This document shows, piece by piece, positions 8,101 through 57,972 of a DNA stretch of 64,000 nucleotides. Both the position numbers and the translations under genes were made by a program. Under the pieces are notes generated by a model, which ran no database searches, was not told the DNA's origin, and saw only the letters and a program-made list of their open reading frames with translations. Every line of letters starts with the position of its first letter. The first letter of the stretch is position 1. Origin of the DNA: Chamaelirium japonicum (lineage: Eukaryota > Streptophyta > Magnoliopsida > Liliales > Melanthiaceae); NCBI GenBank assembly GCA_947650365.1, contig OX393557.1, positions 52,212,472 to 52,276,471 of the forward strand, given 5' to 3'.

Positions 8101-9639
8101 ACATCCAGAGTCACAGAGGCTGATAATGGAGATGAGCTGCATGCGAAGCTGGGGGACATGCAACACAGTGGGTAAAGAGAGACGACCGCTCGGTTCTGTA
8201 GTGGCGGTAATCGATCCACACTGCAAGATGGCTAAAGAAGAGCCATCTGCAGTATGTATTGATGGGATGTGCGGTGCCGGTCGGCAATCGGTAAGCAAGG
8301 AAGTATTGGAAGTCATGTGATGGGAGGCCCCAGAGTCCAGAATCCAAGTAGCGAAGGTACCAGGAGTGGCTAAGTGAGCAGAGGAGCTGGAGACGTTGGA
8401 AGCCTCGGCGGAGCTGAATAGGCGGAACTGAAGTTGTGCAAGCTACTGCTGAAGGAGCTGAGTAGCGTCGGGGGCGTCCAAGGAACCCCGGGGTGATGAT
8501 GGAACCGTGCGAGGAGAGGACGGAGCAGTAGCAGCAGCAGCAGTAGAGCCAACGGGTCGACCACGTCCTTGGGGTCTCTGCCTCTTCTCGGGATGTAGCT
8601 TCCAACATGTGGCGACGACATGACCTGGTTTGTGGCAGTGAGTGCACACAAACCGATCACGACCAGAAGCAGAAGTAAGAGAGGCAGCTGGGGCTGTAGC
8701 AAGGATGCCCGTGTTGCTGGAGGGGGACGGAGGAGCCCTGGTGGCGATGGTGCGCAGCCTGGTCTCTTCGGCGACGAACTCAGCAATGTCAGCATCCAAG
8801 TGTGGAAGTGGGTCTCGGTGGATCAGAGCGCCAGCAAGTGGGTCAAACTCTGGTCGAAGGGCCATCAGGAACTGGTAAAGTTGGCGGCGCTCCCAGAAGG
8901 CTTGGTGGGCGGCACGACACTCGGGAGAGACGGGAGGTACCAGTGACTGAAGCTCCCGCCAGTAACCACGCATCTGCGCATGGAATTGCTGGATCGACGA
9001 TCACCCTGCTGTTGGGACTGGACCTGGGAGAGAAGGGCATACTCGCGGGCGCCGCTAGACTCCACGAAGCGCTCAATTAAGGAGCGCCATATAGCTGCGG
9101 ATGCTCCAAGGGCGGCGAGGTCAGCACGCATCGTCCGATCGACTGAAGCGACAAAGTAGGCGGCGACCCGTGCATCACGAAGACGCCACGCTTGAAGAGC
9201 GGCAGGGAAAGCCTGACTCGGTGCCGTGGTGGTGCCGTCGAGTAATCCAAAAAGGTCACGTCCGAGAAGCGTGGTCTGGACGGTGGCTGCCCATGCTTCC
9301 TAATCGGCGGAGGAGGCGAGAGGAAAGTCCGTCGAGCTCGGCAGGAAGTCATGAGTGTACTCGAATGGGAGGCTCTCATGGTGTTGTGGCATGGGCGGAG
9401 GAGCATCTACGGAGGAGGAGTCGGCCATGGTGGCTCGCCGGTCGGATCAGTGGCTTCACTCGGAGCTCAGAGACCGAAGATGCAGATCTAGAGTTCGCCG
9501 GTGCGAGATCGAGATCGAGATCGTCGCGAGATTGAGAGGGCCAGAACTGGAGTTCGCCGGCGCAAGAGAGGGCTCGAGGCTGCTGGCCGGAACTCAGAGT
9601 TCGCCGGAGCTGCGCAGAACCGGCGCAATAGAGGGCTGA

Positions 9640-17998: not shown

Positions 17999-26997
<8,999 letters not shown>

Positions 26998-34980: not shown

Positions 34981-35236
34981 GAGCATGATGATCGGACTCG
35001 CTATAACATAATGTCCATGGTGGTGTGCTGGGTGTGTTGGACATGTTGAATTGGATTGATGATGAATAACAAATCTTGAATTGTAGTCGGCTTGGATTTT
35101 TTCTTTTTTTGTTAGAAATAACTTTTTAGCTTCACAGGCAATCCAGTCACCTTATATGATTTTTGGTAAATATGAGAAATTCTCGGATTGAAAATTATTT
35201 CAAATCCGGAAAAAAAAAAGAATCATCTGGTTCTAC

Positions 35237-35720
35237 TAGGGGTGGCAATGGGTCGGGTCGGGTCGGGTCGGGCTCGTGTCGTGTCTAGTTTCGGGTCGTG
35301 TCCAAAACCCCTAGACCCGGATCCAACCCGTTTAACTAAGCATGTCTATATCCTAAACTCGTACCCGACCCGCTTATAAACGGGTAGACCCGATAAGACC
35401 CGTTTACCACACGGGTCTATTAAGTAGACCTGATCTGACCCAATCCGACTCGACCCGACCTGACCCGATAGACCCACTGGTACTACATATTACAGTATCA
35501 GATTGCGGATAGACTCGACCCGACATGACCCGTTGAATTTTAAACGGGTCTTCTCAGGTCTACCGTGTCCAGACCCTAAACCCAGACCCGACCCGCTTAT
35601 TAAACGGGTCTATCGTGTCGATCCGTTTACAACCCGAACCGTTTAACCTTGACCCAGACCCGCTAACTTCGTGTCCTGTCGTGTGAGTCTGTCGTGTCGG
35701 GTCCAAAATTGCCAGCCCTA
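35237..35720. mobile_element. hAT-type MITE, TIR TAGGG(G/C)TGGCAAT
   Basis: Perfect 8-bp target duplication GGTTCTAC (35,229-35,236 and 35,721-35,728). The ends are TAGGGGTGGCAAT and, on the other strand, TAGGGCTGGCAAT. The interior is GGGTCGGGTC and GACCCGACCCG iterations. It sits about 70 bp outside the left CACTA subterminal repeats. Confidence 0.93.
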
Positions 35721-35800
35721 GGTTCTACCCAAAACAATTTGGTGATGACTATTGAACCACGTACTCGATCGTGAACCCAAAGACGTACCCTATATATATT

Positions 35801-36120
35801 ACCGACGAATATTATATGCCGTCGGCATATTATTTATAATTTTAAAAAAATGAAAATATTATTACCGACGGAATAATTAATGTCCGTCGGTAATAAGTAT
35901 GTTTTTTTTTTTATAAATTTACCTAAATAATGTTATTTAATTCCTGTGATTTACAACAATACCACAATATATTACCACAATTTATCAAATATTACCACAA
36001 TTTATAAAATATTACCGCAAATTTTAAAATATTACCTAAATTGATAAAAAATTATAGCAAATTATCAAATATTACCACAGTACCCGACAATTATAGACAA
36101 GAACAAAAAATAACCACATA
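35801..36120. repeat. left subterminal region of the CACTA element
   Basis: Paired motifs ACCGACGAA...GCCGTCGGC and ACCGACGGA...TCCGTCGGT are followed by repeated ATTACCACAA words. The ATTACCACAA words recur near the right end at 53.44-53.80 kb. Confidence 0.75.
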
Positions 36121-36166
36121 TTACAAAATAATATTTACACAATCCAAAACTGAGAGATGATACATA

Positions 36167-36352
36167 CCCTATCTCAACCACCCCCGCCCGCCACCAACGC
36201 TGGTGCTCTCATCGATCCCCTGACGCCGCCCTATCTCAACCACCCCCGCCCGACACCAACACTGGTGCTCTCATCAATCCTCTGACGCCGCCCTATCTCA
36301 ACCACCCTCACCCGCCACCAACGCTGGTGCACTCATCGATCCCCTGACGCCG
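36167..36352. repeat. three 62-bp tandem repeats
   Basis: Copies start at 36,167, 36,229 and 36,291 with CCCTATCTCAACCACCC and include CTGGTGC(T/A)CTCATC. They are GC-rich, unlike the AT-rich flanks. On the minus strand, frame QEQDGVRGSMSAPALVAG ends within the first copy met and follows a possible splice acceptor TTAATTGCAG, so this may be the 3' end of the second CACTA gene. Confidence 0.8.
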
Positions 36353-36407
36353 TCCTGCTCCTGCAATTAACATGTATTTGTTAAAAAAATAGTTTATATC
36401 TATAACT

Positions 36408-39400
36408 GAGTCTAAGCGTTAAAAAATGATAAGTTAGCGTGTTTCGGTTTTGAAATAGGTTTGGATTCGATCAGATCGGTATCAGATAATTCGAAGTTGG
36501 AAGTATTCCGTATTTCGGACTTGCGAGCGAGTTCTAATTGGATATTTGACCAATTTACGCTCCGATTCACCGATTTAGAGTCTAAGTGTTGGAAAATCAT
36601 AAGTTAGCGTGTTTCGGATATGAAATAGGTTTGGATTCGATCGGATCGTCATCGGATCGGCATCCGATAATTCGAACTTGGAATTATTCCGTATTTTAGA
36701 CTTGCGAGCGAGTTCTAATTGGATATTTGACCAATTTACGCTCCGATTCACCGATTTAGAGTCTAAGTGTTGGAAAATGATAAGTTAGCGTGTTTCGGAT
36801 ATGAAATAGGTTTGGATTCGATCCGATCGTCATCGGATCGGCATCCGATAATTCAAACTTGGAATTATTCTGTATTTCGGACTTGCGAGCGGGTTCTAAT
36901 TGGATATTTGACCAATTTACGATCCGATTGATTCACCGATTTATAGTCTAAGTGTTGGAAAATCATAAGTTAGCGTGTTTCGGATATGAAATAGGTTTGG
37001 ATTCGATCGGATCATCAACGGATCGGCATCCGATAATTCGAACTTGGAATTATTCCGTATTTCGGACTTGCGAGCGGGTTCTAATTGGATATTTGACCAA
37101 TTTACGATCCGATCGATTCACCGATTTAGAGTCTAAGGGTTGGAAAATCATAAGTTAGCGTGTTTCGGATATGAAATAGGTTTGGATTCGATCGGATCGT
37201 CAACGGATCGGCATCCGATAAATCGAACTTGGAATAATTCCGTATTTCGAACTTGCGAGTGGGTTCTAATTGGATATTTGACCAATTTACGATCCGATTC
37301 ACCGATTTAGAGTCTAAGTGTTGAAAAATCATAAGTTAGCGTGTTTCGGATATGAAATATGTTTGGATTCGATCGGATCGTCATCGGATCGGTATCCGAT
37401 AATTCGAACTTGGAATTATTCCGTATTTCGGACTTGCGAGCGGGTTCTAATTGGATATTTGACCAATTTACGATCCGATCGATTCACCGATTTAGAGTCT
37501 AAGTGTTGGAAAATCATAAGTTAGCGTGTTTCGGATATGAAATAGGTTTGGATTCGATCGGTTCGTCAACGGATCGGCATCCGATAATTCGAACTTGGAA
37601 TTATTCCGTATTTTGGACTTGCGAGCGGATACTAATTGGATATTTGACCAATTTACGCTCCGATTCACCGATTTAGAGTCTAAGTGTTGGAAAATCATAA
37701 GTTAGCGTGTTTCGGATATGAAATAGGTTTGGATTCGATCGGATCGTCAACGGATCGGCATCCGATAATTCGAACTTGGAATAATTCCGTATTTCGGACT
37801 TGCGAGTGGGTTCTAATTGGATATTTGACCAATTTACGATCCGATTCACCGATTTAGAGTCTAAGTGTTGGAAAATCATAAGTTAGCGTGTTTCGGATAT
37901 GAAATAGGTTTGGATTCGATCCGATCGTCATCGGATCGGCATCCGATAATTCGAACTTGGAATTATTCCGTATTTCGTACTTTCGAGCGAGTTATAATTG
38001 GATAATTGACCAATTTACGCTCTGATTCACCGATTTAGAGTCTAAGTGTTGGAAAATCATAAGTTAGCGTGTTTCGGATATGAAATATGTTTGGATTCGA
38101 TCGGATCGTCAACGGATCGGCATCCGATAATTCGAACTTAGAATTATTCCGTATTTCGGACTTGCGAGCGGGTTCTAATTGGATATTTGACCAATTTACG
38201 ATCCGATTCACCGATTTAGAGTCTAAGTGTTGGAAAATCATAAGTTAGCGTGTTTCAGATATGAAATATGTTTGGATTCGATCGGATCGTCATCGGATCG
38301 GCATCCGATAATTCGAACTTGGAATTATTCCGTATTTCGGAGTTGCGAGCGGGTTCTAATTGGATATTTGACCAATTTACGATCCGATTCACCGATTTAG
38401 AGTCTAAGTGTTGGAAAATCATAAGTTAGCGTGTTTCGGATATGAAATAGGTTTGGATTCGATCCGATCGTCATCGGATCGGCATCCGATAATTCGAACT
38501 TGGAATTATTCCGTATTTCGGACTTGCGAGCGGGTTCTAATTGGATATTTGACCAATTTACGCTCCGATTCACCGATTTAGAGTCTAAGTACGTGTTGGA
38601 AAATCATAAGTTAGCGTGTTTCGGATATGAAATAGGTTTGGATTCGATCGGATCGTCAACGGATCGGCATCCGATAATTCGAACTTGGAATTATTCCGAA
38701 TTTCGGACTTGCGGGCGGGTTCTAATTGGATATTTGACCAATTTACGATCCGATTCACCGATTTAGAGTCTAAGTGTTGGAAAATCATAAGTTAGCGTGT
38801 TTCGGATATGAAATAGGTTTGGATTCGATCCGATCGTCATCGGATCGGCATCCGATAATTCGAACTTGGAATTATTCTGTATTTCGGACTTGCGAGCGAG
38901 TTATAATTGGATATTTGATCAATTTACGCTCCGATTCACCGATTTAGAGTCTAAGTGTTGGAAAATCATAAGTTAGCGTGTTTCGGATATGAAATAGGTT
39001 TGGATTCGATCGGATCGTCAACGGATCGGCATCCGATAATTCGAACTTGGAATTATTCCGTATTTCGGACTTGCGAGCGGGTTCTAATTGGATATTTGAC
39101 CAATTTACGATCCGATCGATTCACCGATTTAGAGTCTAAGTGTTGGAAAATCATAAGTTAGCGTGTTTCGGATATGAAATAGGTTTGGATTCGATCGGAT
39201 CGTCAACGGATCGGCATCCGATAATTCGAACTTGGAATTATTCTTTATTTCGGAGTTGCGAGCGGGTTCTAATTGGATATTTGACCAATTTACGATCCGA
39301 TTCACCGATTTAGAGTCTAAGTGTTGGAAAATCATACGTTCGCGTGTTTCGGATATGAAATAGGTTTGGATTCGATCGGATCGTCATCGAATCGGCATTC

Positions 39401-42400
39401 GATAATTCGAACTTGGAATTATTCCGTATTTCGGACTTGCGAGAGGGTTCTAATTGGATATTTGACCAATTTACGCTCCGATTCACCGATTTAGAGTCTA
39501 AGTATTGGAAAATCATAAGTTAGCGTGTTTCGGTTATGAAATAGGTTTGGATTCGATCGGATCGTCAACGGATCGGCATCCGATAATTCGAACTTGGAAT
39601 TATTCCGTATTTCGGACTTGCGAGCGGGTTCTAATTAGATATTTGACTAATTTACGATCCGATCGATTCACCGATTTAGAGTCTAAGTGTTGGAAAATCA
39701 TAAGTTAGCGTGTTTTGGATATGAAATAGGTTTGGATTCGATCGGATCGTCAATGGATCGGCATCCGATAATTCGAACTTGGAATTATTCCGTATTTCGG
39801 ACTTTCAAGCGGGTTCTAATTGGATATTTGACCAATTTACGATCCGATTCACCGATTTAGAGTCTAAGTGTTGGAAAATCATAAGTTAGCGTGTTTCGGA
39901 TATGAAATAGGTTTGGATTCGATCCGATCGTCAACGGATCGGCATCCGATAATTCGAACTTGGAATTATTCCGTATTTCGGAGTTGCGAGCGGGTTCTAA
40001 TTGGATATTTGACCAATTTACGATCCGATTCACCGATTTAGAGTCTAAGTGTTGGAAAATCATAAGTTAGCGTGTTTCGGATATGAAATAGGTTTGGATT
40101 CGATCGGATCGTCAACGGATGGGCATCCGATAATTCGAACTTGGAATTATTCCGTATTTCGGACTTGCGAGCGGGTTCTAATTGGATATTTGACCAATTT
40201 ACGATCCGATTCACTGATTTAGAGTCTAAGTGTTGGAAAATCATAAGTTAGCGTGTTTCGGATATGAAATAGGTTTGGATTCGATCCGATCGTCAACGGA
40301 TCGGCATCCGATAATTCGAACTTGGAATTATTCCATATTTTGGAGTTGCGAGCGGGTTCTAATTGGATATTTAACCAATTTACGATCCGATTCACCGATT
40401 TAGAGTCTAAGTGTTGGATAATCATAAGTTAGCGTGTTTCGGATATGAAATAGGTTTGGATTCGATCGGATCGTCATCGGATCGGCATCCGATAATTCGA
40501 ACTTGGAATTATTCCGTATTTCGGACTTGCGAGCGGGTTCTAATTGGATATTTGACCAATTTACGATCCGATTCACCGATTTAGAGTCTAAGTGTTGGAA
40601 AATCATAAGTTAGCGTGTTTCGGATATGAAATAGGTTTGGATTCGATCGGATCGTCAACGGATCGACATCAGATAATTCGAACTTGGAATTATTCCGTAT
40701 TTCGGACTTGCGAGCGGGTTCTAATTGGATATTTGACCAATTTACGATCCGATCGATTCACCGATTTAGAGTCTAAGTGTTGGAAAATCATAAGTTAGCG
40801 TGTTTCGGATATGAAATAGGTTTGGATTCGATCGGATCGTCAAAGGATCGGCATCTGATAATTCAAACTTGTAATTATTCCGTATTTCGGACTTGTGAGC
40901 GGGTTCTAATTGGATATTTGACCAATTTACGATCCGATTCACTGATTTAGAGTCTAAGTGTTGGAAAATCATAAGTTAGCGTGTTTCGGATATGAAATAG
41001 GTTTGGATTCGATCCGATCGTCAACGGATCGGCATCCGATAATTTGAACTTGGAATTATTCCGTATTTCGGAGTTGCGAGCGGGTTCTAATTGGATATTT
41101 GACCAATTTACGATCCGATTCACCGATTTAGAGTCTAATTGTTGGAAAATCATAAGTTAGCGTGTTTCGGATATGAAATAGGTTTGGATTCGATCGGATC
41201 GTCGTCGGATCGGCATCCGATAATTCGAACTTGGAATTATTCCGTATTTCGGACTTGCGAGCAGGTTCTAATTGGATATTTGACCAATTTACGATCCGAT
41301 TCACCGATTTAGAGTCTAAGTGTTGGAAAATCATAAGTTAGCGTGTGTCGGATATGAAATAGGTTTGGATTCGATCGGATCATCAACGGATCGGCATCCG
41401 TTAATTCGAACTTGGAATTATTCCGTATTTCGGACTTGCGAGCGGGTTCTAATTGGATATTTGACCAATTTACGATCCGATCGATTCACCGATTTAGAGT
41501 CTAAGTGTTGGAAAATCATAAGTTAGCGTTTTCGAATATGAAATAGGTTTGGATTCGATCGGATCGTCAACGGTTCGGCATCCGATAATTCGAACTTCGA
41601 ATTATTCCATATTTCGGACTTGCGAGCGGGTTCTAATTGGATATTTGACCAGTTTACGATCCGATTCACCGATTTAGACTCTAAGTGTTGGAAAATCATA
41701 AGTTAGCGTGTTTCAGATATGAAATAGGTTTGGATTCAATCCGATCGTCAACGGATCGGCATCCGATAATTCGAACTTGGAATTATTCCGTATTTCGGAG
41801 TTGCGAGCGAGTTCTAATTGGATATTTGACCAATTTACGATCCGATTCACCGATTTAGAGTCTAAGTGTTGGAAAATCATAAGTTAGCGTGTTTCGGATA
41901 TGAAATAGGTTTGGATTCGATCGGATCATCATCGGATCGGCATCCGATAATTCGAACTTGGAATTATTCCGTATTTCGGACTTGCGATCGGGTTCTAATT
42001 GGATATTTGACCAATTTACGATCCGATTCACCGATTTAGAGTCTAAGTGTTGGAAAATCATAAGTTAGCGTGTTTCGAATATGAAATAGGTTTGGATTCG
42101 ATCCGATCGTCATCGGATCGGCATCCGATAATTCGAACTTGGAATTATTCTGTATTTCGGAGTTGCGAGCGGGTTCTAATTGGATATTTGACCAATTTAC
42201 GATCCGATCGATTCACCGATTTAGAGTCTAAGTGTTGGAAAATCATAAGTTAGCGTGTTTCGTATATGAAATAGGTTTGGATTCGATCGGATCATCAACG
42301 GATCGGCATCCGATAATTCAAACTTGGAATTATTCCGTATTTCGGACTTGCGAGCGGGTTCTAATTGGATATTTGACCAATTTACGATCCGATTCACCGA

Positions 42401-45400
42401 TTTAGAGTCTAAGTGTTGGAAAATCATAAGTTAGCTTGTTTCGGATATGAAATAGGTTTGGATTCGATCGGATCGTCAACGGATCGGCATCCGATAATTC
42501 GAACTTGGAATTATTCCGTATTTCGGACTTGCGAGCGGGTTCTAATTGGATATTTGACCAATTTACGATCCGATTCACCGATTTAGAGTCTAAGTGTTGG
42601 AAAATCATAAGTTAGCGTGTTTCGGATATGAAATAGGCTTGGATTTGATCGGATTGTCAACGGATCGGCATCCGATAATTCGAACTTGGAATTATTCCGT
42701 ATTTCGGACTTGCGAGCGGGTTCTAATTGGATATTTGACCAATTTACGATCCGATTCACCGATTTAGAGTCTAAGTGTTGGAAAATCATAAGTTAGCGTG
42801 TTTCGGATATGAAATAGGTTTGGATTCGATCCGATCGTCAACGGATCGGCATCCGATAATTCGAACTTGGAATTATTCCGTATTTCGGACTTGCGAGCGG
42901 GTTCTAATTGGATATTTGACCAATTTACGATCCGTTTCACCGATTTAGAGTCTAAGTGTTGGAAAATCATAAAGTTAGCGTGTTTCAGATATGAAATAGG
43001 TTTGGATTCGATCGGATCGTCATCGGATCGGCATCCGATAATTCGAACTTGTAATTATTCTGTATTTCGGACTTGCGAGCGGGTTCTAATTGGATATTTG
43101 ACCAATTTACGATCCGATTCACCGATTAAGAGTCTAAGTGTTGAAAAATCATAAGTTAGCGTGTTTCGGATATGAAATAGGTTTGGATTCGATCCGATCG
43201 TCATCGGATCGGCATCCGATAATTCGAACTTGGAATTATTTCGTATTTCGGACTTGCGAGCGGGTTCTAATTGGATATTTGACCAATTTACGCTCCGATT
43301 CACCGATTTATAGTCTAAGTGTTGAAAAATCATAAGTTAGCGTGTTTCGGATATGAAATAGGTTTGGATTCGATCCGATCGTCATCGGATCGGCATCCGA
43401 TAATTCGAACTTTGAATTATTTCGTATTTCGGACTTGCGAGCGGTTTCTAATTAGATATTTGACCAATTTACGCTCCGATTCACCGATTTAGGGTCTAAG
43501 TGTTGGAAAATAATAAGTTAGCGTGTTTCGGATATGAAATAGGTTTGGATTCGATCCGATCGTCATCGGATCGGCATCCGATAATTCGAACTTGGAATTA
43601 TATTCCGTATTTCGGACTTGTGAGCGGGTTCTAATTGGATATTTGACCAATTTACGATCCGATTCACCGATTTAGAGTCTAAGTGTTGGAAAATCATAAG
43701 TTAGCTTGTTTCGGATATGAAATAGGTTTCGATTCGATCGGATCGTCATCGAATCGGCATCCGATAATTCGAACTTGGAATTATTCCGTATTTCGGACTT
43801 GCGAGCAGGTTCAAATTGGATATTTGACCAATTTACGCTCCGATTCACCGATTTAGAGTCTAAGTGTTGGAAAATCATAAGTTAGCGTGTTTCGGATATG
43901 AAATAGGTTTGGATTCGATCGGATCGTCAACGGATCAGCATCCGATAATTCGAACTTGGAATTATTTCGTATTTCGGACTTGCGAGCGGGTTCTAATTGG
44001 ATATTTGACCAATTTACGATCCGATCGATTCACCGATTTAGAGTCTAAGTGTTGGAAAATCATAAGCTAGCGTGTTTCGGATATGAAATAGGTTTGGATT
44101 CGATCGGATCGTCAATGGATCGGCATCCGATAATTCGAACTTGGAATTATTCCGTATTTCGGACTTGCGAGCGGGTTCTAATTGGATATTTGACCAATTT
44201 TCGATCCGATTCACCGATTTAGAGTCTAAGTGTTGAAAAATCATAAGTTAGCGTGTTTCGGATATGAAATAGGTTTGGATTCGATCCGATCGTCAACGGA
44301 TCGACATCCGATAATTCGAACTTGAAATTATACCGTATTTCGGAGTTGCAAGCGGGTTCTAAATGGATATTTGACCAATTTACGATCCGATTCACCGATT
44401 TAGAGTCTAAGTGTTGGAAAATCATAAGTTAGCGTGTTTCGGATATGAAATAGGTTTGGATTCGATCGGATCGTCATCGGATCGGCATCCGATAATTCAA
44501 ACTTGGAATTATTCCGTATTTCGGGCTTGCGAGTGGGTTCTAATTGGATATTTGACCAATTTACGATCCGATTCACCGATTTAGAGTCTAAGTGTTGGAA
44601 AATCATAAGTTAGCGTGTTTCGGATATGAAATAGGTTTGGATTCGATCGGATCGTCAACGGATCGGCATCCGATAATTCGAACTTGGAATTATTCCGTAT
44701 TTCGGACTTGCGAGCGGGTTCTAATTAGATATTTGACCAATTTACGATCCGATCGATTCACCGATTTAGAGTCTAAGTGTTGGAAAATCATAAGTTAGCG
44801 TGTTTCGGATATGAAATAGGTTTGGATTCGATCGGATCGTCAACAGATCGGCATCCGATAATTCGAACTTGGAATTATTCCGTATTTCAGACTTGCGAGC
44901 GGGTTCTAATTGGATATTTGACCAATTTACGATCCGATTCACCGATTTAGAGTCTAAGTGTTGGAAAATCATAAGTTAGTGTGTTTCGGATATGAAATAG
45001 GTTTGGATTCGATCCGATCGTCAACGGATCGGCATCCGATAATTTGAACTTGGAATTATTCCGTATTTCGGAGTTGCGAGCGGGTTCTAATTGGATATTT
45101 AACTAATTTACGATCCGATTCACCGATTTAGAGTATAAGTGTTGGAAAATCATAAGTTAGCGTGTTTCGGATATGAAATAGGTTTGGATTCGATCGGATC
45201 GTCATCGGATCGGCATCCGATAATTCGAACTTGGAATTATTCCGTATTTCGGACATGCGAGCGGGTTCTAATTGGATATTTGACCAATTTACGATCCTAT
45301 TCACCGATTTAGATTCTAAGTGTTGGAAAATCATAAGTTAGCGTGTTGCGGATATGAAATAGGTTTGGATTCGATCGGATCGTCAACGGATCGGCATCCG

Positions 45401-48400
45401 ATAATTCGAACTTGGAATTATTCCGTATTTCGGACTTGCGAGCGGGTTCTAATTGGATATTTGACCAATTTACGATCCGATCGATTCACCGATTTAGAGT
45501 CTAAGTGTTGGAAAATAATAAGTTAGCGTGTTTCGGATATGAAATAGGTTTGGATTCGATCGGATCGTCAAAGGATCGGCATCCGATAATTCGAACTTGC
45601 AATTATTCCGTATTTCGGACTTGCGAGCGGATTCTAATTAGATATTTAACCAATTTACGATCCGATTCACTGATTTAGAGTCTAAGTGTTGGAAAATCAT
45701 AAGTTAGCGTGTTTCGGATATGAAATAGGTTTGGATTCGATCCGATCGTCAACGGATCGGCATCCGATAATTCGAACTTAGAATTATTCCGTATTTCGGA
45801 GTTGCGAGCGGGTTCTAATTGGATATTTGACCAATTTACGATCCGATTCACCGATTTAGAGTCTAAGTGTTGGAAAATCATAAGTTAGCGTGTTTCGGAT
45901 ATGAAATAGGTCTGGATTCGATCGGATCGTCATCGGATCGGCATCCGATAATTCGAACTTGGAATTATTTCGTATTTCGTACTTGCGAGCGGGTTCTAAT
46001 TGGATATTTGACAAATTTACGATCCGATTCACCGATTTAGAGTCTAAGTGTTGGAAAATCATAAGTTAGCGTGTTTCGGATATGAAATAGGTTTGGATTC
46101 GATCGGATCGTCAACGGATCGGAATCCGATAATTCGAACTTGGAATTATTCCGTATTTCGGACTTGCGAGCGGGTTCTAATTGGATATTTGACCAATTTA
46201 CGATCCGATCGATTCACCGATTTAGAGTCTAAGTGTTGGAAAATCATAAGTTAGCGTGTTTCGAATATGAAATAAGTTTGGATTCGATCGGATCGTCAAC
46301 GGTTCGGCATCCGATAATTCGAACTTCGAATTATTCCGTATTTCGGACTTGCGAGCGGGTTCTAATTGGATATTTGACCAATTTACAATCCGATTCACCG
46401 ATTTAGACTCTAAGTGTTGGAAAATCATAAGTTAGCGTGTTTCAGATATGAAATAGGTTTGGATTCGATCCGATCGTCAACGGATCGGCATCCGATAAAT
46501 CGAACTTGGAATTATTCTGTATTTCAGAGTTGCGAGCGAGTTCTAATTGGATATTTGACCAATTTACGATCCGATTCACCGATTTAGAGTCTAAGTGTTG
46601 GAAAATCATAAGTTTGCGTGTTTCGGATATGAAATAGGTTTGGATTCGATCGGATCGTCATCGAATCAGCATTCGATAATTCGAACTTAGAATTATTCCG
46701 TATTTCGGACTTGCGAGCGGGTTCTAATTGGATATTTGACCAATTTACGATCCGATTCACCGATTTAGAGTCTAAGTGTTGGAAAATCATAAGTTAGCGT
46801 GTTTCAGATATGAAATAGGTTTGGATTCGATCCGATCGTCATCGGATCGGCATCCGATAATTCGAACTTGGAATTATTCCATATTTCGGAGTTGCGAGCG
46901 GGTTCTAATTGGATATTTGACCAATTTACGATCCGATCGATTCACCGATTTAGAGTCTAAGTGTTGGAAAATCATAAGTTAGCGTGTTTCGGATATGAAA
47001 TAGGTTTGGATTCGATCGGATCATCAACGGATTGGCATCCGATAATTCAAACTTGGAATTATTCCGTATTTCGGACTTGCGAGCGGGTTCTAATTGGATA
47101 TTTAACCAATTTACAATCCGTTTCGCCGATTTAGCGTCTAAGTGTTGGAAAATCATAAATTAGCGTGTTTCGGATATTAAATAGGTTTGGATTCGATCGG
47201 ATCGTCAACGGATCGGCATCCGATAATTCGAACTTGGAATTATTCCGTATTTCGGACTTGCGAGCGGGTTCTAATTGGATATTTGACCAATTTACGATCC
47301 GATTCACCGATTTAGAGTCTAAGTGTTGGAAAATCATATGTTAGCGTGTTTCGGATATGAAATAGGTTTGGATTCGATCGAATCGTCAACGGATCGGCAT
47401 CCGATAATTCGAACTTGGAATTATTCCGTATTTCGGACTTGCGAGCGGGTTCTAATTTGATATTTGACCAATTTACGATCCGATTCACCGATTTAGAGTC
47501 TAAGTGTTGGAAAATCATAAGTTAGCGTGTTTCGGATATGAAATAGGTTTGGATTCGATCCGATCGTCAACGGATCGGCATCCGATAATTCGAACATGGA
47601 ATTATTCCGTATTTCGGACTTGCGAGCGGGTTCTAATTGGATATTTGACCAATTTACGATCCGATTCACCGATTTATAGTCTAAGTGTTGGAAAATCATA
47701 AGTTAGCGTGTTTCGGATATGAAATAGGTTTGGATTCGATCGGATCGTCATCGGATCGGCATCCGATAATTCAAACTTGGAATTATTCTGTATTTCGGAC
47801 TTGCGAGCCGGTTCTAATTGGATATTTGACCAATTTACGATCCGATTCACCGATTTAGAGTCTATGTGTTGAAAAATTATAAGTTAGCGTGTTTCGGATA
47901 TAAAATAGGTTTGGATTCGATCCGATCGTCATCGGATCGGCATCCGATAATTCGAACTTAGAATTATTTCGTATTTCGGACTTGCGAGCGGGTTCTAATT
48001 GGATATTTGACCAATTTACGCTCCAATTCACTGATTTAGAGTCTAAGTGTTGGAAAATCATAAGTTAGCGTGTTTCGGATATGAAATAGGTTTGGATTCG
48101 ATCCGATCGTCATCGGATCGGCATCCGATAATTCGAACTTGGAATTATTTCGTATTTCGGACTTGCGAGCGGTTTCTAATTAGATATTTGACCAATTTAT
48201 GCTCCGATTCACCGATTTAGAGTCTAAGTGTTGGAAAATCATAAGTTAGCGTGTTTCGGATATGAAATAGGTTTGGATTCGATCCGATCGTCATCGGATC
48301 GGCATCCGATAATTCGAACTTGGAATTATATTCCGTATTTCGGACTTGTGAGCGGGTTCTAATTGGATATTTGACCAATTTACGATCCGATTCACCGATT

Positions 48401-48597
48401 TAGAGTCTAAGTGTTGGAAAATCATAAGTTAGCGTGTTTCGGATATGAAATAGGTTTGGATTCGATCCGATCGTCATCGGATCGGCATCCGATAATTCGA
48501 ACTTGGTATTATTCCGTATTTCGGAGTTGCGAGCGAGTTATAATTGGATATTTGACCAATTTACGCTCCGATTCATCGATTTAGAGTCTAAGTGTTG
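36408..48597. repeat. satellite array, about 67 monomers of 181/185 bp with higher-order structure
   Basis: Head-to-tail monomers each contain AAATCATAAGTTAGCGTGTT, GGATCGGCATCCGATAATTC and TTGGATATTTGACCAATTTA in fixed order. The usual period is 181 bp. A variant with an extra GATC-type insertion (CCGATCGATTCACC) is 185 bp. In 40.6-42.0 kb and 43.9-47.0 kb the variant recurs every 728 bp, a four-monomer higher-order repeat. Private variants recur at a constant 4,728-bp offset (for example 41,573 with 46,301 and 43,591 with 48,319). The array begins and ends at the same word, GAGTCTAAG-GTT. The many 68-codon frames on both strands are by-products of the monomer and not genes. Confidence 0.97.
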
Positions 48598-48762
48598 AGC
48601 ACTGCTCGAAGCTTCGGAGGCTGCGACCACATCAGGAGCTGGTGTGGAGAGAGGAGCAGCACTACCAGATCCGGACGGCTCAGCCTCGGACCCTGGGGTG
48701 GCAGCCGGAGCGCTCCGAGCTACCCCACCCCTGCCTCTACGAACATATGACCGTGATGCCAT
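48598..48762 (-). pseudogene. 5' fragment of a second CACTA gene, cut by the satellite
   Basis: From an ATG at 48,762 the minus strand encodes MASRSYVRRGRGGVARSAP and then a Ser/Ala/Pro-rich stretch (EAEPSGSGSAAPLSTPAPD). The frame then runs into the satellite at 48,597. Its position beyond the 3' end of the transposase fits the second (TNPA-like) gene of CACTA elements. The basic, Arg/Gly-rich start suits a nucleic-acid-binding protein. No domain was recognised and the satellite separates it from any downstream exons. Confidence 0.5.
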
Positions 48763-48769
48763 CTGAAAC

Positions 48770-49050
48770 AGATTAATTTACATATGAAACAGTAAGATTT
48801 ACATATGAAACAATATGAAACAGTTTGATTTACATATGAAACAGTAAGATTTACATATGAAACAATATAAAACAGTTTGATTTACATATGAAACAGTATG
48901 ATTTATGAAACAATATGAAACAGTTTGATTTACATATGAAACAGTATGATTTACATATGAAACAGTATAAATTAATATGATATACATATGAAACAATATG
49001 ATTTATATATGAAACAATTTGATTTAAATATGAAACAATTTGATTTACAT
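48770..49050. repeat. short tandem repeat around TTTACATATGAAACA
   Basis: About a dozen imperfect copies of ATTTACATATGAAACAGTATG or shorter forms lie between the two CACTA genes. This AT-rich region is probably the transposase 3' UTR and the upstream region of the second gene. Confidence 0.85.
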
Positions 49051-49055
49051 ACGGT

Positions 49056-52000
49056 CTAGTCATTTTCTGTCTCATCTCTGTCACTCTCATCGCTTCCCTC
49101 TTCTATTATTTGAACTACATTCGCTGTCCAGTTTATATTGTCGACATCTTCATTTTCATCATGCACTGCGTCGACAATGATTATCTCATCATTCTGGTAT
49201 GCATCCAAATCATCATCGACGACCCCCGTATCCTTGTCTCCCATGTCATAAAAATCTCTGGGTGGTGACCTGACTACAATTTGCCAACCTGGAAAGGTAT
49301 TATCCGGTGCATAAAATATCTGTTGCGCTTGAGAGGCAAGAATGAATGGATCTTCATATTGGGTATTCAATCTCTTGCCAGTGTTGATGCTGATAAAACC
49401 GTATTTGTCGATATTATAACCAGTCCCGCGATTATTAACATCATACCAAACGCATTTGAATAATACGATCCGATTTTGGCCAAGGAATTTAATCTCGAGA
49501 ATCTCGTTGAGGACGCCGTAGAAATCGATATTTTCTAATTCTTCTTGCTCACCGTTGACGACAACCCCACTATTTTGGGTTCTTCGTGATTTTTCACTAT
49601 TTTTCGTCCGAAATCTATAACCGTTCACGATATAACCATCGTACGATATTGCGTCTTGCAAAGGACTACAAGATAAGCGCCAGAGATCCTCATTCATCAG
49701 TGGATCGTGGTTGTCGTGCAGCTCCTGTGCCTATAATAACCACATGATATTCATGATATGAACACATAATTATTGTTCGGTAATGGATGTCAATGAAATT
49801 CAGTAATGATGTGAATACTTACGTGTTTCTCAAACCACGATGGGAATTCACGATCATGAATTTGGGGAGCATTTCGAGTACCCCGATTATTAATGATGGC
49901 TTTATGCTTCCTGTTTTACCGGTTATGAATTAGATTATAATTAGCACATATACTTAATGAATGGACTGAAAGAATGAGTAAATGATCGTAAAATGCTTAC
50001 TCAATGAATGGCCACACTTCATCACATTGGCGCAACACATACATATGTGCCTGTTGAATCTCATCTACAGACAATCGACGGGTTTTGCCTCCTCCTACAG
50101 GTCTACCCATTTCGGCAAATATACACAGACCCCCATCGAAGTCTATTGGACCACTGTCATAGTTCCGCTCAAGTTGATTGAATCGCGTGTCTATACCATG
50201 TAGGTATCTTGAGCAGAATATTAGACATTCTTCTGCTAGGTATCCTTCAGCAATTGATCCCTCCGGATGACTTTTATTACGAACATATGATTTCAATGTT
50301 CGCAAGTACCTAATTTGAGAAAAAAATATTTGGATGAATATATCAAGAACGATCAAATACATTGTGCGAATGAGACGAGACGATTACCTCTCGATAAAAT
50401 ACATCCAGCGGTAATGAACTGGGCCGCCGAGTTTGGCCTCATTTGCCAAGTGAACGGTCAAATGCACCATGACATCAAAGAAGGAAGGTAGAAATATCAT
50501 CTCTAACTTGCACAATGTGAGCGCAATATCCCTCTCCAACTGTTCAAGTTGGTCCACTCTAAGTACCTTCGAGCACAACTGTCTGAAAAAAGTGCTGAGC
50601 TTAATTAACGGACCGGACATCTGTTCGGTTAAATTCCCACGTATAGCAAGAGATAACAATCGCTGCATAAGAACATGACAATCGTGGCTCTTTAATCCAG
50701 ACAACTTCCAGCCGTTCTCTTGCACGCATCGTGCGATATTCGAAGAATAATTGTCTGGCTTTTTCACAGACCGTAGGAATGCACATAAGGCTGCCTTTTA
50801 CTGTGAGCTCATGGTGTAGCATGCAACATGCAACACATACTTATCCTCAATCTCTTAGGGATGAAGTGATTTTCGGATGCCCAACTTCTTAAGATCGAGA
50901 CGAGATTTAAGATTATCCTTCGTCTTACCGTTGAGATTCAGCAGTGTTCCTATAATGTTGTCACACACATTTTTCTCGATATGCATGACATCCAAGTTAT
51001 GCCGCAAGAGTAGGCTGCTCCAGTACGGTAGTTTAAAGAAAATACTCTTCTTCTTCCAGTTATGCTCACGCGTAGAATCTTCATGTGTTCTCTTCTTTTT
51101 ACCTTTTCCAAGTGCCACGGCATCAAGCTGATCCAATTCGCACAAGACTTCTACCCCCGAAAGCTGCTCCGGGGCCTTTACAAGTTCCTTCTTGCCGTTG
51201 AAAGCTCTTTTGTTCTGTCTCCACTTATGGCCGTCAACAAGGAATCTTCGATGGCCCATATAATAGAACTTGCCTCCGTTCTTCAACCGTAATGAATCTG
51301 TCTCCTTATTGCATGTAGGGCACGCCAATTTTCCTTTAGTACTCTACCCGGATAAGTTGGCATATGCAGGAAAATCGTTGATGGTCCATAGAAGTGCCGC
51401 ATGCATCCGAAAATTCTAGCGCAATGAGGCATCATACGTATCGGCCCCAACTTCCCATAACTCGTTCAACTCCTCAATCAACGGCTGCAAGTAAACGTCA
51501 ATATCATTACCAGGCGACCTGGGTCCGGGAATGAGCAAGGAGAGCATTGTGTATGGCTTTTTTAAGCACATCCAGGGAGGCAAATTGTATGGAACTAGGA
51601 CAACTGGCCAAATGTTGTACGACACACTCATATTCCCAAAGGGATTGAAGCCATCGCTAGCAAGCCCTAACCTGACGTTGTGAACTTCACATGCGAATTC
51701 AGGATAGGTATGATCAAAATCTTTCCACGTCAGAGAGTCGGCCGGATGTCTCATAATCCCGTCATCTGTACGTTCTCGTGCATGCCACCTCATATGCTCA
51801 GCAGTCTTCGATGACATAAACAACCTCTGAAGCCTGTCCCTGAGCGGGAAGTATAGGAGAGCCTTTGCAGATATATTTTTCTTCCTTTGACTGGTACTAG
51901 ACTCGGCATCCGTCTCTTTATATCTCGTTGCTCCGCATATGTGGCATGACCGCGCATGTTCATACTCTTTCTGGTACAACATACAATCGTTCACGCATGC

Positions 52001-52656
52001 ATCAATTTTCTCATAACCCAGACCGAGATCTTTAATTGTCTTCTTCGCCTCGTAGAATGATTTCGGTACTGTCTCACCCATAGGAAAAGCCTCTTTCAGC
52101 AACTCTACCAACATATTAAATGACTTATTACTCCAACCATTGAGGCACTTCAAATGAAGAAGCTTTACAGTGAAAGAGAGTTTTGAAAACTTCTCACACC
52201 CCGGGTATAGAGGTTGTTCGGCATCTTTAAGCAATCTGTAGAACTTGTCCCTTCGATATTGGGCTGATCACCTAACGGTGTTTCCGTGCCTATTCCACCT
52301 TGCAAATCATGTATCATACGCTGCATGTCATCGTCATCGTCTGTATTAATATTATCATCAGCGATCACTGTATTTGAAGTTTCACCGTGAGCTGCCATGG
52401 GGACTGCATCTAGCTCCTTACCGTGCGAGAACCAACGGGTATAGCTAATGTCAATGCCATGCATTACCAGATCAACCTCACATTCCTCTCGAACCTTCCT
52501 AATCACCCTTCCGCAGTCTATACAGGGACACACAATTTTTCCATCAAGCGGTGCAAGACGCTCAAATGCAAAATCCAGAAATTTCCTGACTCCTTCTCTG
52601 TACTCTTGGCTCATGCGATTCGAATTACACATCCAACTCTTATCGATCGAAGACAT
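49056..52656 (-). pseudogene. CACTA transposase (tnp2 family), broken
   Basis: In minus-strand order the gene has a Transpos_assoc N-terminus (MSSIDKSWM, then IVCPCIDCGRV), the tnp2 transposase core (LYPGCEKFSKLSFTVKLLHL, SCHICGATRYKE, ACPTCNKETDSLRL), a DUF4218-like part (GLKSHDCHVLMQRLL, FFDVMVHLTVHL) and a DUF4216-like C-terminus (VLFKCVWYDV, DPFILASQAQQIFYA). Introns with good sites include 50,310-50,387 and one starting at 50,000. A short exon reads HKAIINNRGTRNAPQ near 49.83-49.91 kb. Damage: a frameshift near 52.23 kb between the N-terminus and the core, two in-frame TAG codons near 51.41 and 51.35 kb, and stops near 50.85 and 50.80 kb. The copy is not expected to make active transposase. 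Confidence 0.88.
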
Positions 52657-53224
52657 CTTCGTCTATCTGGCTATACAACACCTGACATATAATTTCAAAC
52701 AATATTATAAGACTCCGCACAATTTCGGTTTCGGTTCCCGGGTATGGAACACCGAACCAAAACTTCTACAGGCCATCCACATCCCTAATGGATGAGTGTA
52801 TTATGATGAGTAGACTAGTCACATAGTAAACCTAGGGTTGCTGGCCAGCATTTGAACTGCTGATAGTTCGAATGCTAGGCATAGCACCAAAGTTATGCGA
52901 CAGTAAGTCAACAAGTCAGGGAGCCTCATCAAGTAAACACTTGGGGTCTGACGGTTCTCTCTGTCGCTCGAGTAGATTTATGGCTTTAGCATACCTCATA
53001 TCACACCGAACCGACAAAAACCGACCATTTCGGTTTCGGTTTCGGTTTCGGTTTCGGTTTTGGTTTCGGTTTCGGTTTCGGTTTTGATTTTTCGTAAACC
53101 GAAAAAAATATAACCGACAAAACCCACACCGAAACCGACCGACAAAACCGACGCTCACCCTAGTTTAAAAACTACATTTTGCCCCCCATTCCCCCATTCA
53201 ATTCAGTTTTGATAGGATAAAAAT
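52657..53224. other. intron or leader of the CACTA transposase with (TTTCGG)n
   Basis: The acceptor ATATGTCAG/GTGTTG (minus strand, about 52,682-52,692) lies just before the transposase ATG. A TTTCGG hexamer tract runs at about 53,028-53,090, with CCGACAAAACCG words on both sides. The right part ends in GACGCTCACCCTAG, similar to a hAT-type MITE end. The matching left end was not found. Confidence 0.5.
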
Positions 53225-53439
53225 CAATGTTTTAAAACACGAAAACTCGACTCGACTCGAAACCTTAATGAGTCGAGTAGACACGACAACTCGACTAAAA
53301 CCCGACAAAACTCGAGTCGGATCGAAACTCAGCCGAGTCGGATCGAAACTCGAGTTTTGGACCGAGTCGGATCGAAACTCAGCCGAGTCGAGTCGACTCG
53401 GCCGAGTTTTGAGTCGACTCGGCGAGTTTTAAAACAGTG
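53225..53439. mobile_element. small hAT-like MITE with ACTCGACTCG interior
   Basis: The ends are CAATGTTTTAAAAC and, on the other strand, CACTGTTTTAAAAC. Both flanks carry TAAAAAT (53,218-53,224 and 53,440-53,446), a 7-bp match to a target duplication. The 215-bp interior resembles the element at 45-310. It is nested in the CACTA element. Confidence 0.78.
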
Positions 53440-53800
53440 TAAAAATTACCAAATGAGGGAATTAACCACAATATATTACCACAAATATATTACCACAAAT
53501 TGTGGTATTGTTGTAAATCACAATATATTACCACAAGATAAAAATTACCACAATATATTACCTAAATAAAAATTACCACAATATATTACCTAAATAAATT
53601 ACCACAATATATTACCACAATATATTGTGGTAATTTTGTATTGTTGTAATATATTGTGGTAATATATTGTGGTAATTTTGTGGTATTGTTGTAATATATT
53701 GTGGTAATATATTCCTGTGATTTACAACAATACCACAATATATTTAATTCCTGTGATTTTACCTAAATAAAAATTACCACAATATATTACCACAAATTAA
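53440..53800. repeat. ATTACCACAATAT repeat region of the CACTA element
   Basis: Direct and inverted copies of TTACCACAATATATTACC and their complements give many small palindromes. It shares the sequence CCTGTGATTTACAACAATAC with the left end at about 35,944. Confidence 0.8.
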
Positions 53801-53804
53801 CCTA

Positions 53805-53999
53805 AGGGGGAAAGGGAGGAGGAGGAGGAGCTCACCAGCGATGGTCGGCAGGCCTCGAGAAGGAGGAGGAGCACTAGTGTCGCAGTCGGTGGTGCGAGAA
53901 AGGGGAGGGGTGGCCGGAGGTGCAAGGGAGGGGATGGGTGGCCGGCCGGAGGGGGGGTTTAGATCGAGAGAGAGAGAGAGAGAGGTGAGGGGAGGAAGT

Positions 54000-54042
<43 letters not shown>

Positions 54043-54290
54043 AGGATATGGAGGCCGGGGAGGGGGGGGATGAGGCCGGGGGGAGAGAGAGAGAGGGCCG
54101 GGAGGCCGGGGAGGGGCGGAGGTCGGGAGGGGGATGGGTGGCCGGGAGGGGGATGGGTGGCCGGAGGGGATCGCGGGGCTGCCGGAGGGGGACGGGGTCG
54201 CCGGACGGGTCGGGTCGGTGAGAGAGAGAGAGAGAGAGAGAGATTGAGAGAGGGGCGCCGAAGCTTCGGTCGAAACACAAAAAGAAAAGG
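53805..54290 (-). other. GA/GC-rich leader region of the CACTA element
   Basis: Purine-rich on the plus strand, with two (GA)n tracts (53,970-54,039 and 54,220-54,242) and GGGGATGGGTGGCCGG repeats. On the minus strand it could be a spliced, non-coding 5' exon, since ACCATCGCTG/GTGAGC near 53,840 is a plausible donor. The long open frames across it are low-complexity and not believed. Confidence 0.5.
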
Positions 54291-54317
54291 GTGCAGGCTG
54301 CGGTGTATTGTTGAAGA

Positions 54318-55064
54318 GTTTTTACCGACGGAACTTATAAGTTCCGTCGGTATAATTACTTTATACCAACGGTAGTATAATTTCCGTCGGTAAAAATCAG
54401 CAACGAAACTCAGGGTTCCATTTTTTCCCAGAGGCTCTGGTTTCACCCTGAGTTTCGTCGGGACACTTTTACCGACGGATATTTAATTACCGTCGGTATC
54501 TTACTGACGGACATATAAGTTCCGTCGGTATAATTAGTTATACCGACGGATATATAACGTCCGTCGGTACAAATCGCCGACGAAACTCAGGGTTCCATTT
54601 TTTTTCAGAGGCTCGGTTTTTACCCTGAGTTTCGTCGGGACAATTTTACCGACGGATATTTAATTACCGTCGGTATCGTGCCGACGGCCATAAAATTTCC
54701 GTCGGTATAATTAGTTATACCGACGGACATATAAAGTCCGTCGGTAAAAATCGCCGACGAAACTCAGGGTTCTATTTTTTTTCCAGAGGCTCGGTTTTTA
54801 CCCTGAGTTTCGTCGTGACATTTTACTGACGGTCTTTATGTAGCCGTCGGTATAAAGTATATTACCGACGGTACATATATATACCGTCGGTATAAATCAT
54901 TTTACCGACGAATACTTTTTGACCGTCGGTAATAAATGTGCAAACAAAATTTAAAAAATTGAAGTTATAATACCGACGGATATTATAGTCACCGTCGGTA
55001 AAAAGTATATTATTACCGACGGTGATAATAATGTCCGTCGGTAAAGACCCTATTTCTTGTAGTG
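54318..55064. repeat. right subterminal repeats of the CACTA element
   Basis: More than a dozen short inverted pairs of ACCGACGGA/TCCGTCGGT occur. Part of the region is a 177-bp tandem repeat whose GAAACTCAGGGTTC word occurs at about 54,405, 54,582 and 54,759. Each copy forms a hairpin with ACCCTGAGTTTCGTCG. Such subterminal arrays are the known binding sites of CACTA transposition proteins. Confidence 0.9.
55046..55064 (-). other. CACTA terminal inverted repeat
   Basis: Reads CACTACAAGAAATAGGGTC on the minus strand. It is an exact CACTA terminus followed inward by ACCGACGG. Confidence 0.9.
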
Positions 55065-57257: not shown

Positions 57258-57972
57258 TCATGGGCACTTGTACTTCTTCAAGGGTCCGTTGACGATGATC
57301 TTGGTCATGTAGCAGGGGCACTTGCTCTCGTCCTTTAGGCTCGGCACGCACTTGCAAGCCATGCAGCAGTCGACGCAGTCCTTGTAGCACCGCCGCTTGG
57401 GCTTCGGGCCCTTGTAGCACCGCTCCATGCACTTGCCCTGGCAGAAGTCTGCACAAACATCAGACCCATCAACCCAAACTGAAATTGCAAAACAAAGTAA
57501 ATTTAAAACTTGGAACAAACTAATTATAATGTAAAGGTCGATCGGTCTGCAAACGAGCCAAGTTGCAGAGCTCATGAACAAGCTCGGTAAGTGTGGCTCG
57601 ATCGAGATTGTTCGATTATTAATTGAGCCAATCCCAAATCCGGCGGGGTCTATATTAGGCTCGTTCGAAATTGTTGGATTGTTAGTTCAGCCATATCTAA
57701 CCTTCGGGCTTAATTAGGCTAATTTGATAAACGAGTCGAGCTCAATCAGACCAATGTTAGGCTGGATACAATTAATAGTCGAGCCAACCTAATTTTTGAC
57801 CAAGCCGAGTTTAAATAGACGAAAGCTCTATGACACTACTGTTGCTCAGAAAGATTACAAGCTGTAAGAGACTAATATTGTTAGTACTACCTGAAGCAGC
57901 AATTGCAGATTCAAGGTAGGATGAAGTTATGAGGAGGAGCATGAGAGCCAAGGTGAGAGTGAGAACCTTCAT
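57258..57972 (-). CDS. GASA/snakin-type cysteine-rich peptide 2 (divergent)
   Basis: Two exons, 57891-57972 and 57258-57448, with a 442-bp intron (donor TTCAG/GTAGTA, acceptor TTTGTGCAG/AC), encode 90 residues. The signal peptide is MKVLTLTLALMLLLITSS. The domain has all 12 cysteines (DFCQGKCMERC, RRCYKDCVDCCMACKC, SKCPCYM, YKCP). It departs from the family norm: the usual CSKAG becomes CYKGPKPK, and the usual VPSGTYGNK loop is shortened to VPSLKDES. Exon lengths equal those of GASA gene 1, so the two are paralogs in opposite orientation about 25 kb apart. The peptide is expected to be secreted. Altered loops hint at a changed role (inference). Confidence 0.92.

What the first reader, a model, noticed from the sequence alone, without database searches (positions are those of the whole stretch)
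35795..55064. A 12-kb satellite array lies inside a CACTA transposon
Seen directly: CACTA terminus and tnp2 transposase on the right, CACTA subterminal words on the left, and about 67 satellite monomers between. Both CACTA ends share a 20-bp word (CCTGTGATTTACAACAATAC). If this is one element, it is a transposon that hosts, and could spread, a mature satellite with higher-order structure. Short tandem repeats inside transposons are known; an array this long and ordered inside a CACTA element would be a striking case of satellite birth or capture.
Basis: partly seen in the sequence, partly recalled or inferred. Interest (0 to 1): 0.9.

Follow-up and report, generated by a model that had tools for sequence, protein, structure and literature searches.

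The report
Satellite array carried by CACTA transposons
A 12-kb tandem repeat in this plant window is a built-in part of a jumping gene family that carries the same repeat, in varying length, at about a thousand or more places in its genome.

Summary
The finding holds and is much larger than one locus. The window has a 181-bp satellite (66.7 copies, 36474-48597) inside a CACTA element whose right end is at 55064. The window's own genome (1.52 Gb, unnamed plant) shows that the array is a standing part of the family. Its commonest left junction occurs at 1,341 places and its right junction at 1,099. On contig C1, 44 of 45 TNPA-bearing places below 79.8 Mb have an array junction upstream on the same strand. 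The monomer core occurs 60,220 times (about 10.9 Mb, 0.7%). One complete 16.2-kb copy has both CACTA ends and a perfect 3-bp target duplication; another is 13.9 kb with 26 monomers. Measured arrays run from 8 to 105 monomers (median about 30). The array lies 3' of TNPA, and about 70 copies hold a second, inverted array between TNPA and TNP2. Every array edge that I examined was CACTA sequence; 27-40% of the monomers stay unassigned. The window copy is damaged: its left terminus and most of TNPA are gone. Satellite arrays near the 3' end of CACTA elements are known from Chenopodium quinoa (PMC8978399), with an unrelated monomer and few cases shown. This is a genome-scale variant of a known kind.

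The parts
35791..36394 (+). Remaining left (3') subterminal region of the CACTA element; the outermost 356 bp with the left terminus are missing
   Evidence: BLAST colinearity with complete copy E4 (window 35791 = E4 551; E4 left end at 195)
35943..35962 (+). 20-bp word CCTGTGATTTACAACAATAC, left copy (859 exact places in the genome)
36167..36356 (+). 62-bp GC-rich tandem repeat, 3.1 copies, also present in E4
36395..36420 (+). Left array junction TATATCTATAACTG|AGTCTAAGCGTT, of the type found at 1,341 places in the genome
36409..48598 (+). 181-bp satellite array, about 67 monomers (TRF core 36474-48597), with an internal duplication at a lag of 26 monomers
48598..48762 (-). TNPA-like gene, exon 1 only; later exons absent in this copy (E4 5858-7807 missing)
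48764..49051 (+). ATATGAAACA-type minisatellite between TNPA and TNP2; the place where about 70 other copies hold a second, inverted satellite array
49056..52662 (-). TNP2 transposase gene region (Transpos_assoc, Transposase_21, DUF4218, DUF4216)
53714..53733 (+). 20-bp word, right copy, same strand as the left one; not present in E4
54322..54937 (.). Right (5') subterminal repeats, TACCGACGG words
55046..55064 (-). Right CACTA terminus, CACTACAAGAAATAGGGTC on the - strand

Best explanation
This is a damaged member of a high-copy CACTA (En/Spm-type) transposon family in which a 181-bp satellite array is a standing part of the element. The array sits in the 3' non-coding stretch between the end of the TNPA gene and the 3' subterminal repeats. 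Shown: nearly all copies sampled carry the array; most share the same left and right junctions, while one subfamily (L001, L003, L004) has another left boundary; junctions lie at over a thousand dispersed places; a whole copy with array lies between CACTA ends and a 3-bp target duplication; array length differs from copy to copy; monomers in one array are enriched for nearest relatives in the same array. Inferred: TNP2/TNPA cut and paste moves the array as cargo; element number rises by the usual replication-linked or gap-repair routes; array length changes by unequal exchange, slippage and gap-repair errors; arrays homogenise within element lineages, so that subfamilies of the transposon have their own satellite subfamilies. 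The transposon thus dispersed most, perhaps all, of this satellite.
For: Satellite beside the left word in 8 of 8 and 37 of 40 places on C1. Left junction at 1,341 places (pattern with two ambiguous bases and a 0-2 gap, no mismatch) and right junction at 1,099 places with up to 3 mismatches; reversed-pattern controls 0. TNPA start at 977 places. Of 85 exact TNPA starts on C1 up to 127.8 Mb, 62 have the exact right junction about 1.75 kb upstream; below 79.8 Mb, where the left-junction list also reaches, 32 of 45 have it and 12 of the other 13 have a left junction upstream. 44 of 56 exact right junctions on C1 pair with a left junction on the proper side, giving 8-105 monomers, median 29.5; wrong side 3, other strand 7 of 56. 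Complete copy E4, 13,941 bp, 25.7 monomers. Complete copy C1:12240248-12256487, both ends, CGA on both sides. Monomer core 60,220 times against 1 for the reversed control. Nearest neighbour in the same array 30% against 4% permuted; lag-26 duplication in the window array. Monomer divergence within the window array 4.3%, to E4 5.1%, to other subfamilies 13-23%. No joint without an array: 0.
Against: E4 flanks agree in only 2 of 3 TSD bases (agg/tgg), so a perfect TSD rests on one copy; in two further copies the right end was not in the fetched stretch. The position lists cover the first 100 places, so contig C1 almost only (137 of 1,519 Mb). At the measured mean of 33 monomers, 1,099 right or 1,341 left junctions account for about 60% or 73% of the 60,220 monomers; diverged subfamilies, site-2 arrays and lost junctions are plausible for the rest, but free arrays are not excluded. 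Left boundary not shared by all: 2 of 8 aligned sequences (L001, L004) differ. Two word places (L085, L098) had no satellite in the probed 1.2 kb, though L085's word has a left junction 3.3 kb on; one TNPA start had neither junction upstream. The longest measured arrays (95 and 105 monomers) may include nested insertions. Movement with the array was not observed directly.
Confidence: 0.86

Rival explanations
1. The array is not mere cargo but a maintained, useful part of the element, for example a spacer, a protein-binding platform or a chromatin module near the 3' end, with a lower limit on length.
For: Array junctions in 44 of 45 TNPA-bearing places; shortest of 44 junction-to-junction arrays at site 1 is 8 monomers and no array-less joint was found; a better conserved core in the monomer across subfamilies; a second array taken up in inverted orientation between TNPA and TNP2, with at least two different junctions and about 70 copies of one.
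Against: Recent spread from a master copy with about 30 monomers gives the same picture without selection; the length range (8-105) is wide; arrays at the second site can be shorter (about 5 monomers in L067); no binding, transcript or chromatin data.
Confidence: 0.2
2. An independent satellite existed first, and CACTA elements insert into it or next to it by target preference.
For: In one place (C1 about 483-500 kb) a second left junction lies inside or beside an older element's array, so nesting near arrays occurs.
Against: Junctions at the same base in over 1,000 places, array on the inner side of both element ends, and target duplication outside the array. Of five arrays without the exact word among the first places, three were fetched at their edges and all three are CACTA-bound; the other two carry the right junction and the site-2 junction. 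Of 30 satellite loci, 10 were given to the edge test, 9 had an edge and all 9 are CACTA.
Confidence: 0.03
3. Assembly misjoin or collapsed repeat at this locus.
For: Long arrays are hard to assemble; the window copy differs from E4 by missing stretches at two places.
Against: The same order is seen in E4 and, by junction patterns, at hundreds of other places.
Confidence: 0.02
4. Origin by capture: the first array came from an outside satellite or circular DNA, rather than by tandem duplication of the element's own 3' sequence. This concerns the origin only and can be true together with the best explanation.
For: Apart from one 57-bp piece at the array's own right boundary, the monomer has no match in the rest of E4 or the window at E 1; an ARGONAUTE fragment was captured by this family too.
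Against: No outside array of the monomer was seen; the array begins and ends within about 26 bp of the same monomer phase (GAGTCTAAG... on the left, GAGTCTAAGTGTTGGAAAATCATAAGT on the right), as expected for whole-unit tandem growth in place.
Confidence: 0.4

Closest known systems
CACTA-like element Jozin with captured satDNA array in Chenopodium quinoa (PMC8978399; passages seen)
   Same: Satellite array inside a CACTA with near-complete ends, close to the 3' end, in several copies; monomer of similar size (171 bp); FISH even along chromosomes.
   Different: There 5.55 kb, 32.5 monomers, four scaffolds named. Here the array is in nearly all TNPA-bearing places sampled, over 1,000 junctions, arrays to about 105 monomers, a second inverted site. 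Monomers unrelated: 194 of 200 shuffles score as high.
CficCl-61-40 satellite from the tnp2 region of Chenopodium CACTA elements (PMC7320549; abstract seen)
   Same: Link between CACTA elements and a major satellite.
   Different: There an about 40-bp fragment of tnp2 serves as the start monomer; here a 181-bp non-coding monomer 3' of TNPA, kept inside the element.
Cg_HINE non-autonomous Helentrons of the Pacific oyster (PMC7492417; abstract and passages seen)
   Same: Satellite-like monomers as a fixed central module spread genome-wide (4.8 Mb, 0.85%).
   Different: Another superfamily, non-autonomous, arrays on average up to 5 monomers, longest about 29.
Ogre LTR-retrotransposon-derived satellites of Lathyrus sativus (PMC7004042; passages seen)
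   Same: Short tandem arrays inside dispersed mobile elements as the source of satellites.
   Different: Retrotransposons; long arrays there expanded mainly in primary constrictions; here the arrays sampled stay inside the elements.

Membership tests
CACTA (En/Spm, DTC) superfamily | CACTA terminal inverted repeats at both ends | tested here: met
   Both ends in E4 and in C1:12240248-12256487. The window copy has only the right end.
CACTA (En/Spm, DTC) superfamily | 3-bp target site duplication | tested here: met
   CGA/CGA in one complete copy; E4 has agg/tgg, 2 of 3 bases. Two other copies probed: right end not in the fetched stretch. The window copy cannot be tested, its left end being lost.
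CACTA (En/Spm, DTC) superfamily | TNP2-type transposase (Pfam Transposase_21) | tested here: met
   Two window stretches, E 6e-57 and 1.3e-20, above the curated cut-off.
CACTA (En/Spm, DTC) superfamily | TNPA-like second gene (Pfam Transposase_24) | tested here: met
   E 1.1e-15 for exons of E4 joined by eye; of the single stretches one gave 0.039, the others no such match. Only exon 1 remains in the window.
CACTA (En/Spm, DTC) superfamily | Subterminal short repeats at both ends | tested here: met
   TACCGACGG words at both ends, seen directly.
Satellite DNA | Long head-to-tail arrays of similar, homogenised monomers | tested here: met
   67 monomers in the window with 4.3% mean divergence; 8-105 units between junctions on C1.
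Satellite DNA | Heterochromatic or centromeric block location | not testable with these tools
   On C1 the junctions are dispersed along the contig; chromatin unknown.
Chenopodium quinoa CACTA-captured 171-bp satellite | Homologous monomer | tested here: not met
   Local score 15 against a shuffled mean of 18.1; 194 of 200 shuffles at or above.

The most novel reading that the evidence does not exclude
The satellite is a selected module of an autonomous transposon: a length-variable array that the CACTA family needs or benefits from, kept in nearly every copy, and taken up at least twice more in inverted orientation between its two genes. On this reading a major satellite of a plant genome is not a chromosomal repeat at all but a transposon organ that has reached about 11 Mb.
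Probability: 0.2. Interest if true: 0.85.

Novelty: new variant of a known kind. Interest (0 to 1): 0.64.

Why it matters
How satellites become dispersed and how transposons seed them is a long-standing question. Here one genome offers about a thousand or more arrays that mostly share both boundaries, sit in datable elements and differ in length, so array growth, contraction and homogenisation can be measured copy by copy against the age of each insertion. It also warns that a satellite of this abundance (about 0.7% of the assembly) can be mainly transposon-borne.

Tried and rejected
Chimera idea: the element at C1:483116-499900 first looked like a recombinant between two subfamilies within the array. 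A left junction at C1:494285 points instead to a younger element nested in or beside an older one; dropped. The first right-junction pattern (32 places, 28 exact) turned out to mark only copies of the E4 type, in which a stretch with an ARGONAUTE fragment interrupts the last monomer; the commoner right junction was then searched. Relation of the monomer to the C. quinoa monomer: none. A mixed-orientation array in L046: only a 13.7-bit partial hit, not counted. Search for an array-less joint: 0 places. Array lengths from word to junction (30 of 100 words paired; wrong side 4, other strand 4) were replaced by junction-to-junction lengths. TSD in two further copies: right end not in the fetched stretch. 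Papers: searches, of which I saw the listings; the search for '181 bp' with satellite, CACTA and genome assembly gave 0 papers.
Full report
What is there. The window (C9:52212472-52276471 of an unnamed 1.52-Gb plant assembly) contains a 181-bp tandem array at 36474-48597 with 66.7 copies. To its right lie, on the minus strand, TNPA exon 1, then an ATATGAAACA minisatellite, a minus-strand TNP2 gene with Transpos_assoc, Transposase_21, DUF4218 and DUF4216 domains, subterminal TACCGACGG repeats and a CACTA terminus ending at 55064. To its left lie a 62-bp repeat, AT-rich words and subterminal repeats starting at 35791. The 20-bp word is present on both sides in the same orientation.

Is it one element? 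A second copy, E4 (in C1:5919800-5934900, L069+L070), is complete: 13,941 bp from CACTACAAAAAAAACAG to CTTGTAGTG, with a 25.7-copy array of the same satellite. The window is colinear with it: the four main blocks, the first of which runs into the array, are 93.7-97.0% identical. The window lacks E4 195-550 (left terminus) and E4 5858-7807 (rest of TNPA); window 53469-53791, with the right copy of the 20-bp word, has no partner in E4, which holds the word once. In E4 the array lies beyond the last TNPA exon that I could read and before the 3' subterminal repeats. Joined TNPA exons match Transposase_24 at E 1.1e-15.

Is it a family trait? The 20-bp word occurs at 859 places. The first 8 listed all have the satellite beside them. 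The next 40 in order were probed with 1.2 kb each: 37 have it, in the expected orientation. Of the three without, L102 is a right-end copy of the word, L085 has a left junction 3.3 kb further on, and L098 shows none. In an alignment of eight copies, six (window, E4, L002, L005, L006, L008) share the left junction to the base; L001 and L004 have another left boundary, and L003 matches L001 in the stretch printed. The common left junction occurs at 1,341 places and the right junction at 1,099 with up to 3 mismatches; reversed-pattern controls gave 0. TNPA starts number 977. On C1 up to 127.8 Mb there are 85 exact TNPA starts, 62 with an exact right junction about 1.75 kb upstream on the same strand. 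Below 79.8 Mb, where the left-junction list also reaches, there are 45: 32 have the right junction, and 12 of the other 13 have a left junction 3.7-8.8 kb upstream, so 44 of 45; the ten misses above 79.8 Mb could not be checked this way. No joint without an array was found. Lists show only the first 100 places, hence mostly C1.

Does the satellite live elsewhere? Five arrays among the first places lack the exact word nearby. Three were fetched at their edges and all three are CACTA-bound; the other two carry the right junction and the site-2 junction. Of 30 satellite loci, I gave 10 to the edge test; 9 show an edge and all 9 edges are CACTA. The monomer core occurs 60,220 times, about 10.9 Mb or 0.7%. 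At the measured mean of 33 monomers, the right or left junctions account for 60% or 73% of these, so 27-40% are not assigned; I cannot exclude some free arrays.

Does it move with the element? The copy at C1:12240248-12256487 (16,240 bp; about 41 monomers from the word-to-junction distance) has both CACTA ends and CGA on both sides. E4 has agg and tgg, one mismatch. Together with shared junctions at over a thousand dispersed places this supports movement as cargo; movement itself was not observed.

How does the array change? Junction-to-junction lengths on C1 (44 of 56 right junctions paired) run from 8.0 to 104.7 monomer units, median 29.5; controls on the wrong side 3 and other strand 7 of 56. 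The window's 67 is in the upper tail, 2 of 44 being longer. In the window array a block of about 20 monomers is repeated at a lag of 26 (0 of 1000 permutations reach it), and a longer variant recurs every fourth monomer in part. Across 37 arrays and 528 monomers (five overlapping or duplicate loci dropped; L061 and L064, 8 kb apart, were kept as two), the nearest neighbour lies in the same array in 30% of 502 young-subfamily monomers against 4% when labels are permuted, and in 58% against 18% of 26 older ones. Mean divergence is 4.3% within the window array, 5.1% to E4, 13% to L002 and 22.5% to L001. So arrays were inherited with standing variety, then turned over locally, and subfamilies of the transposon carry their own satellite subfamilies. 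Unequal exchange, slippage and gap-repair error are the likely routes (inference).

A second site. In L015, L032, L051 and L067 an array in inverted orientation sits in the minisatellite between TNPA and TNP2, with one identical junction. That junction occurs at 70 places, 60 exactly. By comparing the lists by eye, 11 of 13 such places on C1 have the site-1 right junction 1.9-2.0 kb upstream on the same strand. L114 shows a different junction, so a second event. Such copies have two opposed arrays.

A captured gene piece. In E4 the last monomer is split by a stretch of about 296 bp whose 42-residue reading frame matches the PIWI region of ARGONAUTE proteins (AGO10, E 1e-10; Pfam Piwi E 0.0017, below the curated cut-off). 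The left joint of that stretch occurs at 32 places, E4 among them; the stretch itself was read in full only in E4, and L116 shares its last part.

Comparison. The closest case is the 5.55-kb, 32.5 x 171-bp array near the 3' end of CACTA elements in Chenopodium quinoa (PMC8978399, passages). The position near the 3' end is the same; the monomers are unrelated. Other parallels are Helentrons of the oyster (PMC7492417) and Ogre elements of Lathyrus (PMC7004042). The kind of thing is therefore known; the near-universal presence, the number of copies, the array lengths and the second inverted site are what I found no parallel for in the papers seen.

Verdict. Whether the array is cargo (favoured) or a useful part of the element is the open and testable question.

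Noticed in passing
window 35229-35728: A hAT-like short element (TIR TAGGGGTGGCAAT / ATTGCCAGCCCTA, about 484 bp) with an 8-bp target duplication GGTTCTAC, just left of the truncated CACTA end. The hAT label is recalled, not from a library.
   Followed up: partly
L069:9026-9154 (within E4 5858-6153): ARGONAUTE (PIWI region) fragment captured inside the last satellite monomer of E4; the left joint of that stretch is present at 32 places in the genome.
   Followed up: partly
L015, L032, L051, L067, L114: Second satellite array, inverted, between TNPA and TNP2; at least two different insertion junctions; about 70 copies of one.
   Followed up: partly
C1 about 483-500 kb and 5.198-5.215 Mb: Two like arrangements of a young element nested in or beside an older subfamily's array, with matching left sequences; duplication or repeated nesting not resolved.
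   Followed up: no
C1:13933085 (-) and C1:13929456 (+): The one TNPA start without an upstream array junction has a left junction 3.6 kb away on the opposite strand, perhaps an inverted copy.
   Followed up: no
window 824-8442 (-): Two retrotransposon polyprotein stretches (RVT_2, rve, gag_pre-integrs; Copia type by recall) one after the other.
   Followed up: no
window 22337-24868 (+): Gene pieces resembling the DHU1 (DWD hypersensitive to UV-B 1) N-terminus, followed by WD40 repeats.
   Followed up: no
window 57258-57686 (-): GASA (gibberellin-regulated) cysteine-rich peptide.
   Followed up: no
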